A DNA stretch of 64,000 nt. It comes from Sisyra terminalis (taxonomy: Eukaryota; Arthropoda; Insecta; Neuroptera; Sisyridae). Position 1 is the stretch's first letter; each line of letters opens with the position of its first letter. The DNA is taken from assembly GCA_958496175.1 (NCBI GenBank), contig OY292280.1, positions 2,604,001-2,668,000 on the forward strand. Direction: 5' to 3'. Under the pieces are notes generated by a model. The model was not told where the DNA came from, did not search any database, and saw only the letters and a list, made by a program, of their open reading frames with translations. The position numbers and the translations under genes were made by a program. Positions 7,205-60,275 of the stretch are shown here, one piece after another.

Positions 7205-8299
7205 TATCATAAAATTATAGTTTTTTGCCTAAATAAGAAACATATGGTCTATTAGTATAATAGTTGGTTTAAGACTTTTAGTGTAAATACTCATAAGTAG
7301 TAGAGTGTAAATAAATAACGTAAATAAATGTCCGTAAAAACAAGTATGTGACTTTTCGTGATTTGATCTACAAAATGGAAAAAGTAACAATATTTTCAAT
7401 CCCAAAAAAAAATCAATTATATAAAATTAATTGAAAAGTGTATGAGACCATAAAATTTGTTAATTATTGTTTCAATTATCGGGGATGATCATCTAAAATT
7501 AGATTGATGCGTTTATGGATCAAAATTGGTTTTTGGTTGACCTTTGGCGATTTCATCAGAATTTACTCTAGTTGAAATATTTTAATGTGGGGTTACCATA
7601 TAGGGGATGCAACCCTCAACTGAACTAAACGGAAAATTTTGATGTGAAAAACATGATATGTTATTAAGGGCGGGAGGGGTGAATTATAAAATGCTAAAGA
7701 AATATCACTTGCAATTTGCTGAAGCATTAACTGATGTCGTATTAGACGTGAGTTGAAGTGATTTTGTTTTTCTTTTGGGGATGAACGGTGAAAACGTAGA
7801 TTTTTCCTCGTCAGGGAATCAATATTGTTAATATGATTTTCCGATGACTGGTTATCATTTTCATTGGCAGTATTGAACATTTTCACAATGTGAAAATAAA
7901 TTCATGTAAATTTCCACAATGATAATTGTGAGCATCCGTCCCGTATGCATCGATTTGATTCAATGCCGGTACTAATTTCCCATCAACCCTTCCATTGAGC
8001 ACGTGTTAAATACCTTTAGGGTGAATTAATGTCGATTACAAAATTTGTATCAATCGTCACCCCTTGTTGATTTGACTTGGAAACAAAAAAAAAATGTTTG
8101 ATTTTCCCTAAAATTTTCTTTAGCTTTCCAACTTCTGTACATCAAACAATTGCACCCTTAAATTTTTGGTTTTAGGTAATAAAAATATCTCAAATATCAC
8201 CTAAACGGTGTGGTGAAGTATTTACTTATGCAGTTTTGGTTGAAAACTAAAATTAAAACCTAATTTATTGAAAAAGAAAAATTAAACAAAAAAAGCCTA
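7205..8299. other. No gene seen
   Basis: Mostly unique AT-rich sequence. A 97-codon frame on the minus strand (7593-7886) has no domain-like pattern and is probably chance. Confidence 0.5.
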
Positions 8300-8457
8300 C
8301 TGCTGGCCGAGTGGCCGAAGTGACCACTCCAAAACTGGTAGGTTTTGGGTACGATCTTTGTATCGAGCAAGTTTTTGATTACGGATTTTCATTAATTCTA
8401 AAGTCCCTAAAGACCATTGCAATTAATAAAGCGACGCTAAATAACAGTTAAAAAAAT
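8300..8457 (+). repeat. tRNA-derived SINE, copy 1 of a tandem trio
   Basis: A box TGGCCGAGTGG at 8303, B-box-like GGGTACGATC about 45 bases later, then the body TTTTTGATTACGGATT, the AAAGTCCCTAAAGACC block and an AACAGTTAAAAAAA tail. The next copy starts only about 14 bases after the tail. Confidence 0.8.
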
Positions 8458-8470
8458 CGGCCCTACCCTT

Positions 8471-8627
8471 GGTGGCCGAGTGGTCAAGGTGACCACTCCA
8501 AAACTGGTGGGTTTTGGGTTCGAGTTTTGTATTGAGCAAATTTTTGATTACGGATTATCATTAATTCTAAAGTCGCTAAACACCACTGTAATTAATAATG
8601 CGACGCTAAATAACAGTTAAAAAAAAT
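8471..8627 (+). repeat. tRNA-derived SINE, copy 2, best-preserved RNA polymerase III boxes
   Basis: This is the best copy for promoter sequence. The A box TGGCCGAGTGG starts at 8472 and the B box GGGTTCGAG is near 8517. The body matches copy 1 almost base for base and ends in the same A-rich tail. The A-to-B distance of roughly 46 bases fits a tRNA-Ser/Leu-type internal promoter. SINEs of this kind are copied by the reverse transcriptase of a partner non-LTR element; the partner here is unknown. Confidence 0.85.
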
Positions 8628-8636
8628 CGGCCCTAC

Positions 8637-8712
8637 CCTTGATGGCCGAATGGTCAAGGTGGCCGCTTCAAAACTGGTTGATTTTCGATTCGATCCTCGT
8701 TTCAAGTAATGT
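8637..8712 (+). repeat. tRNA-derived SINE, copy 3, truncated
   Basis: Head only: TGGCCGAATGG at 8643 and a B-box-like GATTCGATCC near 8688. The body of the other copies is replaced by unrelated sequence after about 8705. It starts about 170 bases after copy 2, the same step as between copies 1 and 2. Confidence 0.7.
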
Positions 8713-8929
8713 ACTTAGCCGGATCACTATGACGAGTAGACCCAAGTCGATACTTATGTTAAAATATCGATTTGATGTAAAACCACATTCTAGGTAAATT
8801 TCGCGACCAAATTTTTCTTTGACCTTGAGATATGGACATAACGTAACATTTACTGTTACATTATTGTAACCAAATAAGAAAACAATTCAGATTGCTTAAG
8901 ATCGGTTTTTTTATTTAATATTTTTTAAT

Positions 8930-8983
8930 ATTCAAATTAGCTACGTTTCGTTACGTATCGTAACTTCTTCAGGCTTCTTGAAT
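8930..8983 (-). ncRNA. Hammerhead ribozyme motif, family HH-A
   Basis: Read on the minus strand. Stem I is ATTCAA with TTGAAT, plus an inner GC/GC separated by a small internal loop. The core box is CTGAAGA (position 7, which is variable in hammerheads, is A), followed by one extra A. Stem II is GTTACG-ATA-CGTAAC, fully paired, then GAAA. Stem III is only the self-complementary ACGT. The predicted cleavage triplet is GTA, next to the inner GC of stem I. Type I topology. The compensating base change in stem II relative to the copy at 9424 (G-C where that copy has T-G) supports a real structure. Confidence 0.85.
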
Positions 8984-9032
8984 CACAAAAAAATATTAAA
9001 TAAATTATTTAAATAAACTTTTAAATTATTTC

Positions 9033-9312
9033 AATAGAGTCCATCCAAATATCCAATTTACTTTGGAATTGAATGAGGGGTGGTAGTATCACATGTTTAG
9101 ATACTTTGGTATTGAGGTTACCTGAAGGTAAATTAATTACGGATTGGTACCAAAAATCTACATCAACTGGAAGACTTCTAAATTTCTGGTCACATCATTT
9201 GAAATTGAGCCATGAGTCATTCCATGACAAAAATAGGATGAAAGTGATTAACTTACTTAAATTAAATAATTACCCAAGATTTTTTATCATCCAATATATT
9301 GCAAAATTTTAG
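9033..9312 (+). pseudogene. Penelope-like element reverse transcriptase, C-terminal fragment
   Basis: The translation contains the series VHPNIQFTLEL, then after a one-base frameshift near 9073 LDTLVLRLPEGKLITDWYQK, STSTGRLLNFWSHH and LLKLNNYPRFFI. This order, with the K/Q-[ST]-x-S/T-GR-x-LNF-x-SHH block, is characteristic of the end of the Penelope-clade reverse transcriptase, just past the palm. The second part reads from an ATG at 9073 to a stop at 9310-9312, about 79 codons against several hundred in an intact enzyme. The catalytic YxDD region and any GIY-YIG nuclease are missing. It sits between inverted hammerhead-bearing arms, which fixes its identity. It is non-functional. Confidence 0.85.
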
Positions 9313-9423
9313 CTTATACATCTAAATGAGGAAGAAATAATTTTGAAAAAGGACAATTAAAATAATAATAGCAATACTATCATAAAAAAGAAGACAATCG
9401 GTTCAGGTTCCCGTTCCTGAAAA

Positions 9424-9477
9424 ATTCAAAAAGCCTGATGAAGTTATGATACGTAACGAAACGTAGCTAATTTGAAT
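9424..9477 (+). ncRNA. Hammerhead ribozyme motif, family HH-A
   Basis: Stem I ATTCAA with TTGAAT plus inner GC/GC; core CTGATGA followed by an extra A; stem II GTTATG-ATA-CGTAAC (one T-G wobble); then GAAA; stem III ACGT, self-complementary; predicted cleavage after GTA. It lies just 3' of the Penelope reverse transcriptase fragment on the same strand, where a PLE pseudo-LTR would be expected. Stem III is too short to be stable alone, so cleavage would be expected mainly from a dimer or tandem transcript. Confidence 0.88.
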
Positions 9478-9560
9478 ATTAAATAATATTTAATAAAAAA
9501 ACCGATCTTAAATAATCTGAATTGTCTTCTTATTTAATAAAAGCTGAGGTCAGAATTTTA

Positions 9561-10361
9561 TCATCTATTATTTTAACCTTTGATATGTTTATGAATAGTT
9601 TAACAATTTTTTCAATATTTTTTGATATTTAAGATGATTAAAGTGTAATACTCAAATGATTCCCCCCCCCCAATTTAGAGGGGTAACTAAGCAGAATATA
9701 TTCAGAGTTTTGTTTTTTTTATGTCTAAGTCATTTAATGATTACAAAAATAAAATTTCTGAATAGGGGTATTTCACCATTAATAAGGGTTGAAGTCTTTA
9801 TTGTGGTTAGTATCTTGCAAATGTTTATTGTTTGTTTTGATATTGAAAAATGGAGGTAGAGAGAGGTAATCGAAAAGTAAATGAATAGAAATAGTATCCT
9901 CTTGCTCATATATGGTACGTGTAATTGAAAGGCTATGATTTTTGAAATGATACAAAAAATGCAATTTTTGGAGATTATTCAAAAATCAATACAAAAGTTT
10001 ATTTATATATATTTGAGTATAAGGAGTTCATGTGGTGTCCACATCGAAATTTTTTGGTGGTGGTGAAACATTCAAAAAACATGATTAAGGGTGGTTTGTT
10101 GAAGAAAATAGAATTGTGTGACAGGGTGGTTTTATTTCTCCGGATGTGTGTCTACGTGTGTGAATATGGGATGAATAGAGATGTCTTCCGTAGGATGCAG
10201 CATCCAGGATCTTGAATCTAGAATCTGAATACGTACGGGAACGGCTGCAAGTGGAATGGGATCAAATGGGAACGCAGTGTGGGGGATGAGAGGTGGAAGA
10301 CTACCAAGGGATAACAGAGTATAGAATAGACATTGCAGCCACTCGGTTTTAAGGGAGTTTC
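9561..10361. other. No gene seen
   Basis: AT-rich DNA with a poly-C run at about 9662-9671. Overlapping short frames occur on both strands with no domain-like pattern. Confidence 0.5.
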
Positions 10362-31335: not shown

Positions 31336-32447
31336 TCACTTCCTGACAAAATCGTTTGGCTTATTTAAAATGTGTTTCGTTTCAAGCGATGCACTTTTTG
31401 CGTCGTTTTGTATTTGAAAAACTGGCTATTTTTAAACTATTCGTATGTGCAGATTTTTGCATAGATATATTTATACATTAGCCGAACAAAAACCTCCACA
31501 AATCCATCTGAATTCAAAAAATGTTTCGAAAATATCCAAAATCGATCGATTTTTTGTATCACCTTCTACAATAAATCGATATTTAATCACCAAAAATCGA
31601 TCATTTACCCTTACCGAACCAAAAAACGTAATTCTAAGTGAAATCCTCAAAAATTTTCAATCCAATTTTTGGGGATTTTTTAACAAAACCACCCAAATCT
31701 ACTGATCATAAGCCAGAAAAATCCAAAATTTTTGATAAAAAAAAATATTTTTTTTTTCAATTTTTCCGAATTTCATTTTGATTCGGTGGTAACCTCAAAC
31801 AAAAACACCATCTAAAAATATATGAATTTTCCCGTTTCTTTCTACGTTAACTCTGGGGTCTGCTGCTGGGCAAAATATTTATAGTTATAAAATTGGCACA
31901 CACGAGAAAACGGGGGGAAGAAAATACATCATCGAAGCGCATTTTCCTCGATGTCATGTTTGGAAAACATGAAGGAAATCATCAATTCGACGCCGGCGAG
32001 AAAAAACCACGCTCCCCCCGAAAAATGCCACCCTCACCCCGCGCCAACACCCAACACCGACGCCCAATCAATCGTAATGCTTCAAACGTTCGCGAAAAAT
32101 TCGCAAAAGAATGTGTCGTCTATTTGGAAATCACGAATTTTCCCACATTACCGTCTCACAACGAAACAACGCCTACTTCAATAAATTGAACCAATATTTT
32201 CCCTCTGCACCCTTATAATTATCTTTTAGCTCCCCTAAATTGAAACTTAATACGGAAAATGAAAGAAGCACGTTCTTAAACACACTCAATTTAAAAAAAA
32301 ATGAATGCAAGAAAATGACAAGAAAATTGAAAAATTAATTTTCCCTGTCTTTTTCGTATTTTCCATCAAGTTGTACTCAGAATATCAAATTAGAAATCCA
32401 CCCTTAAAAATATTCAAAATTCACATGTTTAAATGTATAAAATTATA
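31336..32447. other. No gene seen
   Basis: Mixed sequence between the two direct repeats. Two overlapping plus frames at 31893-32189 have no domain-like pattern. Confidence 0.45.
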
Positions 32448-32668
32448 AATTGATGATAAAATTCAGATCTCAGCTTTTATTACTATTATTTATTTCTTGA
32501 ATTCAATATTTTTTTTATATATTTAACTAATATATTTTTTGTGATTCAAGAAGCCTGATGAAGTTATGATACGCAACGAAACGTTGCTAATTTGAATATT
32601 AAAAAACCGTAAATAAAAAAACCGATCTTAAACAATCTGAATTGTTTTCTTATTTAAAATTATAAACC
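32448..32668 (+). mobile_element. Penelope-like terminus (pseudo-LTR piece)
   Basis: Holds an HH-A ribozyme motif and the same 3' sequence as 9424-9545 (AAAAAAACCGATCTTAAA, AATCTGAATTG, TCTTATTTA). Just upstream, ATAAAATTCAGATCTCAGC is the reverse complement of sequence that follows the element ends at 9550 and 60250. So two opposed ends of the element are joined with nothing coding between them. Confidence 0.75.
32544..32597 (+). ncRNA. Hammerhead ribozyme motif, family HH-A
   Basis: Stem I ATTCAA/TTGAAT with inner GC/GC; CTGATGA plus extra A; stem II GTTATG-ATA-CGCAAC with one A-C mismatch; GAAA; stem III ACGT; cleavage triplet GTT, allowed because position 17 may be A, C or U. Same 54-nt length as the other three copies. 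Confidence 0.82.
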
Positions 32669-40739: not shown

Positions 40740-40940
40740 GTTACAAAGTGTTTCAAACTACTTGATGACCACTGAGGAAGATTGCTTGGCAATCGAAATA
40801 CGTATCTGGGTAATACGTCACGAATATTTTTGTTTGAAGTTTTACTCAATTTTATGTTTATGGTATGATTTTTATATATTATTATATTAAATTATACTAC
40901 ATAAATTGGACCGCAATATATTCTATATATTGTATAACTG
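40740..40940 (+). mobile_element. HH-C repeat, best copy, nested in the inverted-repeat element
   Basis: Contains the intact HH-C hammerhead followed by the tail shared with 12015-12139 (TACTACATAAATTGGAC, GCAATATATTCTATATATTG). Just downstream, TATAACTGTTCAAAGTCA is the reverse complement of the sequence just upstream of the copy at 11943. This again hints at opposed copies or ends. Confidence 0.7.
40762..40815 (+). ncRNA. Hammerhead ribozyme motif, family HH-C, intact core
   Basis: Core box CTGAGGA (G at the variable position 7) plus an extra A; stem II GATTGC-TTG-GCAATC, six perfect pairs; GAAA; stem III ATACGTAT, self-complementary; cleavage after C of ATC. Stem I begins CCA/TGG and continues with weaker pairs. 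The core matches CUGANGA...GAAA...UH. Stem I beyond three pairs is not convincing, so this call is less sure than HH-A. Confidence 0.7.
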
Positions 40941-49483: not shown

Positions 49484-49535
49484 ATTTTAGAAGCCTGATG
49501 AAGGTTTAATAAAAGACCGAAACATGTCGCAAAAT
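49484..49535 (+). ncRNA. Hammerhead ribozyme motif, family HH-B
   Basis: Stem I ATTTT/AAAAT plus inner GC/GC with an AGAA bulge; core CTGATGA plus an extra A; stem II GGTTT-AATAAA-AGACC (one T-G wobble); GAAA; stem III ACATGT, self-complementary; cleavage after the C of GTC, the triplet most common in natural hammerheads. The stems differ in sequence from HH-A while the core is the same, as expected for related ribozymes under structural constraint. Confidence 0.82.
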
Positions 49536-59640: not shown

Positions 59641-60061
59641 ATAATCAAAAAAGCTCTGAAAGACTTTCCACGTAAGCGCCGAGCTTTACTCAACCGACTT
59701 TACTTAAACAAATTGTGACTCCACGTTGGAACATAAAATATTCCAACGCAAACATTGGAAAACTACTAACCGTCTATCTTTCAGGTAAGTGCCTTGAAAG
59801 CTCTTCTCCTAACAAAAAGCTCCACACAACACAACTATATCCCGACCAAAAAAAAAATGGTCACATTCTAACTGGTGCAAAAACAATGAACATCGCAAAG
59901 CCAAGCTTCAAAAGCTCAACGATTATTTGCCACAAAAAAAGCTCTCAGACATCAACGAAAGCTCCCCAAAAATCAATTGAACTCCTCTTTCAAACTAATA
60001 TTTAAATCTAAACGAAAATTTTAAAAGGTCATTCAAAAACTATAGATATCAAAAAATCAGA

Positions 60062-60275
60062 AGTCAATTCAGATTGTTTAAGATCGGTTTTTTTATTTAA
60101 TGTTTTTTAAAATTCAAATTAGTTACGTTTCGTTACGTATCGTAACTTCATCAGGCTTCTTGAATCACAAAAATATAATATTTTCAATTTAAATTCAATA
60201 AAAAACCAATCTTACACAACCTGAATTCTTTTCTTATTTAAAAGCTGGGATCTGAATTTTATCATCTATATCAAA
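60062..60275 (-). mobile_element. Penelope-like terminus (pseudo-LTR piece) with opposed ends
   Basis: A minus-oriented arm (60066-60170) with an HH-A ribozyme. It is followed after a short AT stretch by a plus-oriented piece (AAAAAACCAATCTTACACAA, CTGAATTCTTTTCTTATTTA, AAAAGCTGGGATCTGAATTT). It is the mirror image of the arrangement at 32448-32668. Confidence 0.75.
60112..60165 (-). ncRNA. Hammerhead ribozyme motif, family HH-A
   Basis: Minus strand: stem I ATTCAA/TTGAAT; CTGATGA plus extra A; stem II GTTACG-ATA-CGTAAC, fully paired; GAAA; stem III ACGT; cleavage triplet GTA. One base of the inner GC/GC pair of stem I has changed (AC on the 3' side), which weakens but does not abolish the fold. 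Confidence 0.83.

What the first reader, a model, noticed from the sequence alone, without database searches (positions are those of the whole stretch)
8873..9560. Penelope-like remnant flanked by inverted hammerhead ribozymes
A Penelope-type reverse transcriptase piece (9033-9312) sits between two opposed arms, each with a 54-nt hammerhead motif (8930-8983 minus, 9424-9477 plus). All key core elements are present. The two stem II helices differ by a change that keeps the pair (T-G against G-C). Hammerheads in PLE pseudo-LTRs are known; this family and its inverted arrangement seem worth describing.
Basis: partly seen in the sequence, partly recalled or inferred. Interest (0 to 1): 0.9.

Follow-up and report, generated by a model that had tools for sequence, protein, structure and literature searches.

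The report
Retrotransposon remnant with paired inverted ribozymes
It is a decayed copy of an abundant insect Penelope-like retrotransposon carrying two outward-facing hammerhead-type ribozyme sequences; both features are known in this element class, but comparing copies suggests that its two ends come from two separate reverse-transcription starts, which bears on how these elements insert.

Summary
Two hammerhead-type motifs (8930-8983 minus, 9424-9477 plus) flank a broken Penelope-like reverse transcriptase piece. The insert is 8872-9567, with an 11-bp target-site duplication (one mismatch). Minimal hammerheads in Penelope pseudo-LTRs, and inverted pseudo-LTRs, are in print, so the object is a new member of a known kind. 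Rfam's hammerhead models do not match: the motif has one extra nucleotide after CUGANGA, and helix III is a loop-less palindrome (ACGU), so cleavage would need two RNAs.

The genome (377 Mb; host unnamed, an insect by its RT relatives) holds 4517 near-matches to a 19-nt core string. 84 of 103 sampled cores lie in divergent pairs. The fresh result concerns the ends: 49 of 52 sampled insertions (48 after inspection) carry a 30-40 nt 3' tail on exactly one of two arms, and 31 have exact target repeats of 8-17 bp. The two both-tailed exceptions have flanks that are inverted copies of each other. One insertion each of three other hammerhead families looks the same. One insertion has arms of two subfamilies. 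This argues against simple fold-back copying and for two-ended target-primed reverse transcription, one start site per end. Self-cleavage was not tested.

The parts
8861..8871 (.). left target-site duplication, TTATTGTAACC
   Evidence: read; 10 of 11 bases as in 9568-9578; the exact-match finder gave only 6 bp here
8872..8983 (-). left inverted pseudo-LTR arm, short 3' end (no tail), outer end at 8872
8930..8983 (-). hammerhead-type motif, core 8937-8972
9012..9422 (+). broken Penelope-like RT piece up to the RFRFPFL motif, with frameshifts and stops; endonuclease part missing
   Evidence: 9073-9396, E 1.3e-33, 72%, one TAG and one TAA inside; 9012-9077, 9085-9261, 9253-9393, 9384-9422
9424..9477 (+). 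hammerhead-type motif, core 9435-9470; predicted cleavage between 9465 and 9466 (GUA^GCU)
   Evidence: the cleavage site is inferred from the hammerhead fold
9424..9535 (+). right pseudo-LTR arm up to the short-end position
9536..9567 (+). 3' tail (extension beyond the short end)
9568..9578 (.). right target-site duplication, TTATTTTAACC
   Evidence: read
32450..32657 (.). second insertion of the family: left arm tailed with its hammerhead lost, right arm short with hammerhead 32555-32590 plus; AATTATAAA at 32441-32449 and 32658-32666
   Evidence: (blastn hits; ends and repeat read by eye); not among the 52
60054..60268 (.). third insertion of the family: left arm short with hammerhead 60119-60154 minus, right arm tailed with its hammerhead lost; 8-bp repeat ATATCAAA
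49495..49523 (+). hammerhead-type motif of another family (F7), helix III ACAUGU
40772..40798 (+). hammerhead-type motif of another family (F8), helix III AUACGUAU

Best explanation
The window holds a truncated, internally deleted insertion of a Penelope-like retrotransposon whose pseudo-LTRs carry a dimer-type hammerhead motif. Shown: RT homology, motif architecture, divergent arms, target repeats, one tail per insertion in the sample. Inferred: the element RNP (RT plus GIY-YIG endonuclease) makes a staggered cut; the two DNA ends each prime reverse transcription on element RNA, one at the distal start site (tail kept) and one at the proximal site (no tail); the two antisense cDNAs meet at their AT-rich, near-palindromic 5' parts and are joined there, which gives head-to-head arms with 3' ends outward. 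The hammerhead, with a loop-less palindromic helix III, would cut only when two element RNAs pair; it may process tandem transcripts or hold two RNAs together.
For: RT: 188 homologues, best 57% identity to a Cotesia congregata protein; RVT_1 at 1.2e-08 in family copy L028. Orientation: neighbouring cores within 3 kb were 42 minus/plus, 1 plus/minus, 1 plus/plus. Ends: 49 of 52 insertions have exactly one tailed arm (p about 5e-12 against independent ends); after inspection 48 of 52 (p about 7e-11). The tail is on the left in 28 and on the right in 21. Exact repeats of 8 bp or more at the two ends in 31 of 52 against 118 of 2652 mismatched pairings, 10 bp or more in 20 of 52 against 18 of 2652; of the 31, 30 are one-tailed. 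Twenty stretches fetched afterwards gave 6 of 6 fully classified pairs one-tailed; these are also among the 52. One insertion each of families F4, F5 and F6 has one arm extended beyond the other. L056 has one arm of each subfamily and a 12-bp repeat. In vitro, the Anolis Penelope enzyme cuts and extends both strands and starts at two RNA sites between which the tail lies (PMC11167929, parts 1-2 of 4 read).
Against: Arms are more alike within than between insertions (0.055 against 0.129 in 10 class a pairs, 0.080 against 0.121 in 23 class b pairs), although the partner arm is the nearest one in only 16 of 36. One RNA used twice, or two RNAs of one locus, would fit as well as two unlike templates; arms with conflicting subfamily labels were seen in 1 of 42 pairs. 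The Anolis enzyme showed no start-site difference between strands; its hammerhead was not needed for insertion, did not cut without protein, and no RNA reads ended at the cut site. PMC3846280 prefers self-priming on an antisense template. One one-tailed copy, L069, also has outward flanks scoring 22.5, above the null maximum of 19 in the inverted-flank test. The drawn two-strand hammerhead of F1 and F8 is less stable than the best duplex. Extra core nucleotides at other positions lower hammerhead activity (PMC3088659, passages).
Confidence: 0.7

Rival explanations
1. Fold-back (self-priming): one cDNA or its complement snaps back at the 5' end and is copied outward, giving the inverted second arm, as proposed in print for Penelope elements.
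For: Interiors of short copies are near-palindromic, for example 0.99 in L058. The printed interpretation is self-priming (PMC3846280, passages). Arms are more alike within than between insertions.
Against: Simple fold-back copies the same end twice and can run into the flank. The two copies that look like that, L063 and L076, are the two tail/tail cases, with flanks in inverted copy; for L076 this rests on 24 identical bases next to the ends, since the wider test gave 19, equal to the null maximum. The one-tailed majority does not fit. RT-bearing copies are very unequal on the two sides.
Confidence: 0.2
2. The inverted pair is a mobile unit as such (MITE-like), moved as a palindrome by an enzyme that recognises the inverted ends, not re-made at each insertion.
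For: Copies are short (median 345.5 bp; 42 of 52 at most 500 bp), palindromic and often flanked by target repeats.
Against: A cut-and-paste unit would keep one fixed end structure and centre. Here the tail side varies (28 to 21), centres carry variable filler, and RT-bearing copies share the structure.
Confidence: 0.07
3. The motif is a look-alike without ribozyme activity; conservation reflects only recent ancestry of the repeat.
For: No Rfam hammerhead match; one extra core nucleotide in 84 of 84 distinct motifs found; activity not tested; copies were gathered by the core itself, so its conservation is biased; some decayed copies break the helix III palindrome (L035, L063 F3, L083, L097).
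Against: Seven unlike families in the fetched sequence (F1, F3-F8) share the register with different complementary stem II sequences, and helix III is self-complementary, in F7 copy L043 only with G-U pairs. Chance expectation is 0.073 per window. Minimal hammerheads that may act as dimers are reported for Penelope elements (PMC7761336, passages).
Confidence: 0.12

Closest known systems
Penelope-like elements with inverted pseudo-LTRs and tail (bdelloid Pen2a in PMC3846280; Anolis PAc in PMC11167929)
   Same: RT with GIY-YIG relatives, head-to-head pseudo-LTRs, short target duplications (8-10 bp in the bdelloid passages), a 30-40 nt 3' tail, AT-rich targets
   Different: Here the tail is on exactly one arm in 49 of 52 sampled insertions, where print calls it optional on one of the inverted repeats. 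Exact target repeats are 8-17 bp, a length that can take in bases of the element end. Most sampled copies are short palindromic inserts.
Minimal type I hammerheads of Penelope elements, which may cleave as dimers (Cervera and de la Pena 2014; Lunse et al. 2017; seen only as citations in review passages; further details recalled)
   Same: Core CUGANGA ... GAAA, diminished helix III, location in the pseudo-LTR
   Different: The loop-less palindrome of 4, 6 or 8 nt and the single extra nucleotide before stem II are seen here across families of one genome. Whether those papers already state this could not be checked (not held).
[quoted passage not shown] Aedes aegypti (PMC3088659, passages)
   Same: Self-complementary helix III that would allow a dimeric form, so the palindrome as such is not new
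   Different: There stem and loop III together are palindromic (10 bp in Aedes); here there is no loop. Core insertions described in those passages are at other positions.
Metazoan retrozymes (PMC7229834, passages)
   Same: Non-autonomous repeats with type I hammerheads, suggested to be moved by Penelope enzymes
   Different: Retrozymes are direct tandem repeats; these are single inverted pairs with target repeats.

Membership tests
Penelope-like element | Penelope-type RT, defined in PMC11167929 by a telomerase-like RT with a GIY-YIG endonuclease in one ORF | tested here: met
   No call names the RT 'Penelope'. The assignment rests on RT homology, on RVT_1 in longer family copies and on relatives joining RVT_1 with GIY-YIG (P0024, P0030, P0084; L089, where GIY-YIG is below its cut-off).
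Penelope-like element | GIY-YIG endonuclease after the RT | tested here: inconclusive
   Absent from the window copy (internal deletion). Family pieces L028:903-1544, L022 and L010:4600-4968 give no GIY-YIG match in Pfam; the related L043 protein gives 2.9e-05.
Penelope-like element | pseudo-LTRs in direct and/or inverted arrangement | tested here: met
   inverted pairs; plus/plus neighbours seen once and once
Penelope-like element | 3' tail of 30-40 bp | tested here: met
Penelope-like element | target-site duplication | tested here: met
   31 of 52 with 8 bp or more against 118 of 2652 by chance; window copy 11 bp with one mismatch
Hammerhead ribozyme | core CUGANGA ... GAAA ... UH with stems I and II (core recalled) | tested here: met
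   one extra nucleotide between A9 and stem II
Hammerhead ribozyme | helix III closed by its own loop | tested here: not met
   ACGU without a loop. A two-strand form can be drawn, -10.9 and -14.5 kcal/mol for the two window copies with a 3-bp stem I only; the best unconstrained two-strand folds are -23.8 and -26.8.
Hammerhead ribozyme | match to an Rfam hammerhead model | tested here: not met
Hammerhead ribozyme | self-cleavage | not testable with these tools
   needs an in vitro assay
[quoted passage not shown]
   divergent pairs

The most novel reading that the evidence does not exclude
The 'optional' tail of Penelope elements is not optional but obligatory once per insertion. Each insertion is a two-primer product in which the two reverse-transcription start sites at the borders of the tail are used once each, one per DNA end, by a dimeric RNP. 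Inverted pseudo-LTRs are then the normal product of two-ended target-primed reverse transcription, and the palindromic hammerhead helix III is the device that brings two template RNAs together.
Probability: 0.3. Interest if true: 0.75.

Novelty: new member of a known kind. Interest (0 to 1): 0.47.

Why it matters
How Penelope-like elements insert, and why their pseudo-LTRs are so often inverted, is open: a recent in vitro study found two RNA start sites and extension of both target strands, and left the later steps to be validated (PMC11167929). A genome with thousands of short copies turns this into a counting problem, since the one-tail rule separates fold-back from two-ended priming. The hammerheads give a set of unlike families with self-complementary helix III on which dimer cleavage can be tested.

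Tried and rejected
Rfam scans gave no hammerhead; other hits were all below gathering score and were left. A first end classifier by local alignment was too lenient in AT-rich sequence, and the fuzzy one called false tails; both were discarded for the scored one. A hairpin formed by the tail was considered: three tail stretches folded no better than shuffles, and a fourth stretch (L049) was mis-aimed at the arm's upstream side; no hairpin is claimed. Host: TTAGG x5 gave no match, though that tool warns that it skips simple repeats; of four contig ends fetched, three are minisatellite and one is not; a receptor-like ORF gave no homologue. The named RT relatives include braconid wasps, other Hymenoptera, beetles, moths and flies, so an insect, perhaps a parasitoid wasp; not settled. 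A viral-contig scan for the core found nothing. No solved structure matched the L028 RT piece. The genome-wide ratio of tailed to all ends was not obtained: the genome search did not answer from then on.

Selection and dropped rows: loci came mostly from the first 15 Mb of contig C1 through the exact-first list (100 of 4517 places shown), plus the 30 best RT loci. One search left out L001-L008, L014-L018 and L033 as overlapping copies; one search left out L001-L008 and L033 and removed repeated records. L055 duplicates L054. One search dropped L055, L063, L064, L066, L067 and L076. In one search (42 pairs): 29 short/tail, 6 tail/unclear, 2 tail/tail, 1 short/short, 2 unclear/unclear, 1 short/unclear, 1 tail/cut. 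In one search (52): 49 short/tail, 2 short/short (L042, L065), 1 tail/tail (L063). By eye L076 is tail/tail, because the search took an inner decoy for its right end; that makes 48, 2 and 2. L065's right arm has a tail with an internal gap, and L042 is a decayed RT piece; neither was moved. L053's unclear left arm is cut by a nested F5 copy and is scored short/tail in L014.

Full report
What is there. Window 8872-9567 is one insertion. From left to right it has an 11-bp target duplication (8861-8871, TTATTGTAACC), a minus-strand pseudo-LTR arm with a hammerhead-type motif (8930-8983), a broken reverse transcriptase piece on the plus strand, a plus-strand arm with the second motif (9424-9477), a 32-nt tail (9536-9567) and the other duplication (9568-9578, TTATTTTAACC) (the duplication is read by eye). 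The arms are 112 nt, 93% complementary. The motif matches four places in the window and none in 100 shuffles. A search that fixes only core and pairing finds five in the window (three of these four, one F7, one F8) against 0.073 expected.

The protein. The piece matches family copy L010 at E 1.3e-33, 72% identity, with two stops. Alone it has no Pfam RT match, and neither have the L010 and L011 pieces. Longer family copies carry RVT_1 (L028, 1.2e-08; L021, 2.5e-07). The L028 protein has 188 homologues, best in Cotesia congregata (57%), with others in Bombyx, Polistes, Coccinella and Diachasma (best 120 listed). No call names it Penelope. That rests on relatives that join RVT_1 with GIY-YIG (L089 and L043), the combination that defines these elements in PMC11167929. 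The window copy runs to the RFRFPFL motif and then straight into the arm; the endonuclease part is missing.

The ribozyme motif. Both window copies fold with stem I of 3+7 bp and stem II of 6 bp closed by AUA. Compared with the textbook core (recalled) there are two departures. One nucleotide sits between CUGANGA and stem II in 84 of 84 distinct motifs found in the fetched sequence, although 0 and 2 were allowed. Helix III is ACGU with no loop, self-complementary between two molecules. Other families in the fetched sequence (my labels F3-F8) have other stem II sequences but the same register, with helix III ACGU, ACGCGU, ACAUGU or AUACGUAU, and ACGUGU (with G-U pairs) in L043; some decayed copies break it (read by eye). 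Palindromic helix III as such is in print (PMC3088659, passages). For F4 the drawn two-strand hammerhead (-23.3 kcal/mol) is as stable as the best two-strand fold (-23.4). For F1 (-10.9 against -23.8; -14.5 against -26.8) and F8 (-20.9 against -32.6) it is less stable than the best duplex, which is against it as drawn, with stem I cut to 3 bp. Stem II differs between the window copies by one side only (C-G, U-G); one arm, L084 plus, has a two-sided change to U-A. Rfam's models give no hammerhead hit. Activity is untested.

Copies in the genome. The 19-nt core string has 2254 plus 2263 matches with at most one mismatch, and none when read backwards. Of 103 cores in the sample, 84 form 42 minus/plus pairs and 19 are unpaired, some of them because the stretch ends or the partner core is lost. 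Neighbours within 3 kb were 42 minus/plus, 1 plus/minus, 1 plus/plus; one search adds 8 minus/plus and 1 plus/plus. Two upstream sequence classes occur, a (with the RT-bearing copies of the pair table) and b (most short copies); the window copy is b on its left arm. Both arms have the same class in 37 of 42 pairs, and in the other five at least one arm is unassignable.

The ends. Arms end either at the short site or about 30-40 nt further on (tail). With a scored classifier, thresholds set on shuffled flanks, 29 of the 32 pairs with both ends classified have one tailed and one short arm; 10 further pairs were not fully classified. A search by end sequence, independent of the hammerhead core, gives 49 of 52, or 48 of 52 after inspection of L076 (p about 7e-11). 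On 20 stretches fetched afterwards, with score limits 13 for the tail and 12 for the short end, 6 of 6 fully classified pairs agree; 12 stretches held no complete pair in view, one pair was unclear and one was cut. These stretches are part of the 52. Exact end repeats of at least 8 bp occur in 31 of 52 against 118 of 2652 mismatched pairings; 30 of those 31 are one-tailed, and the other, L063, shows only the palindrome CAAATTTG. The two tail/tail copies, L063 and L076, have flanking DNA in inverted copy, so they look like local fold-back events and not ordinary insertions. In L063 the flank score is 158 against a null maximum of 19. In L076 there are 24 identical bases next to the ends, but the wider test gives 19. 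One one-tailed copy, L069, gives 22.5. In the window all three insertions are one-tailed, the one at 32450-32657 by eye.

Other families. One insertion each of F4 (L010), F5 (L014) and F6 (L030) has one arm extended beyond the other, the extension being followed, at 43, 22 and 28 nt, by an 8-, 8- or 13-bp repeat of the other border, of which 4 nt lie inside the arm. The two 8-bp cases are weak taken alone. For F4 a second copy, L072, has much the same extension; for F5 and F6 no second copy was at hand.

Mechanism. The printed view of the head-to-head arrangement is self-priming on an antisense template (PMC3846280, passages), and that paper calls the tail optional at one of the inverted repeats. 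The purified Anolis enzyme cuts and extends both strands and starts at two RNA sites between which the tail lies, with no start-site difference between strands (PMC11167929, parts 1-2 of 4). The one-tail rule fits two separate starts, one at each site, at the two ends of one cut, with the antisense cDNAs meeting in the AT-rich centre, where variable filler is seen. One insertion, L056, has a b1-like left arm and a b2-like right arm and a 12-bp repeat, which needs two templates or later conversion. It is the only one of 42 pairs with conflicting labels (the 19 reference insertions were chosen as concordant). Arms are more alike within than between insertions, so a single RNA used twice, or two RNAs of one source, is the usual case.

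What is new and what is not. Hammerheads in Penelope pseudo-LTRs, their weak helix III and probable dimer action, inverted pseudo-LTRs, tails and target duplications are known. New here, as far as the listings show (open-licence papers only; Cervera 2014, Lunse 2017 and Craig 2021 are not held), is the near-exact once-per-insertion rule and its use against fold-back. I score the object as a new member of a known kind of moderate interest.

Noticed in passing
window 40772-40798 and 49495-49523; L010:8151-8432; L014 near 1946-2119; L030 near 1077-1383: Several unlike hammerhead families (F3-F8) with one extra nucleotide before stem II and self-complementary helix III; some copies are nested inside copies of the main family.
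   Followed up: partly
window 8281-8693: Three tRNA-like repeats (GGCCGAGTGGTCAAGGTG...) at about 169-bp spacing, perhaps a tRNA-derived SINE array or satellite.
   Followed up: no
G000 C1 and C3 ends (L090, L092, L093): Three of four contig ends fetched are minisatellite arrays of unlike units; no TTAGG x5 match, with the tool's warning that it skips simple repeats.
   Followed up: partly
L089 (C1:23627500-23633500): Two near-identical Penelope-like reading frames in opposite orientation, the minus-strand one 854 aa, the other cut by the end of the stretch; an F8 hammerhead lies just past the 3' end of the first.
   Followed up: no
L063:692-1061 and L076:921-1302: Both-tailed copies whose flanks are inverted copies of each other; L076 also carries a piece of the 3' end sequence in its centre. 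Real fold-back events and chimeric assembly were not told apart.
   Followed up: partly
L009:3054-5058: A 2-kb copy with 98% alike inner arms (87 nt) but no RT reading frame seen inside; the interior may be captured DNA.
   Followed up: no
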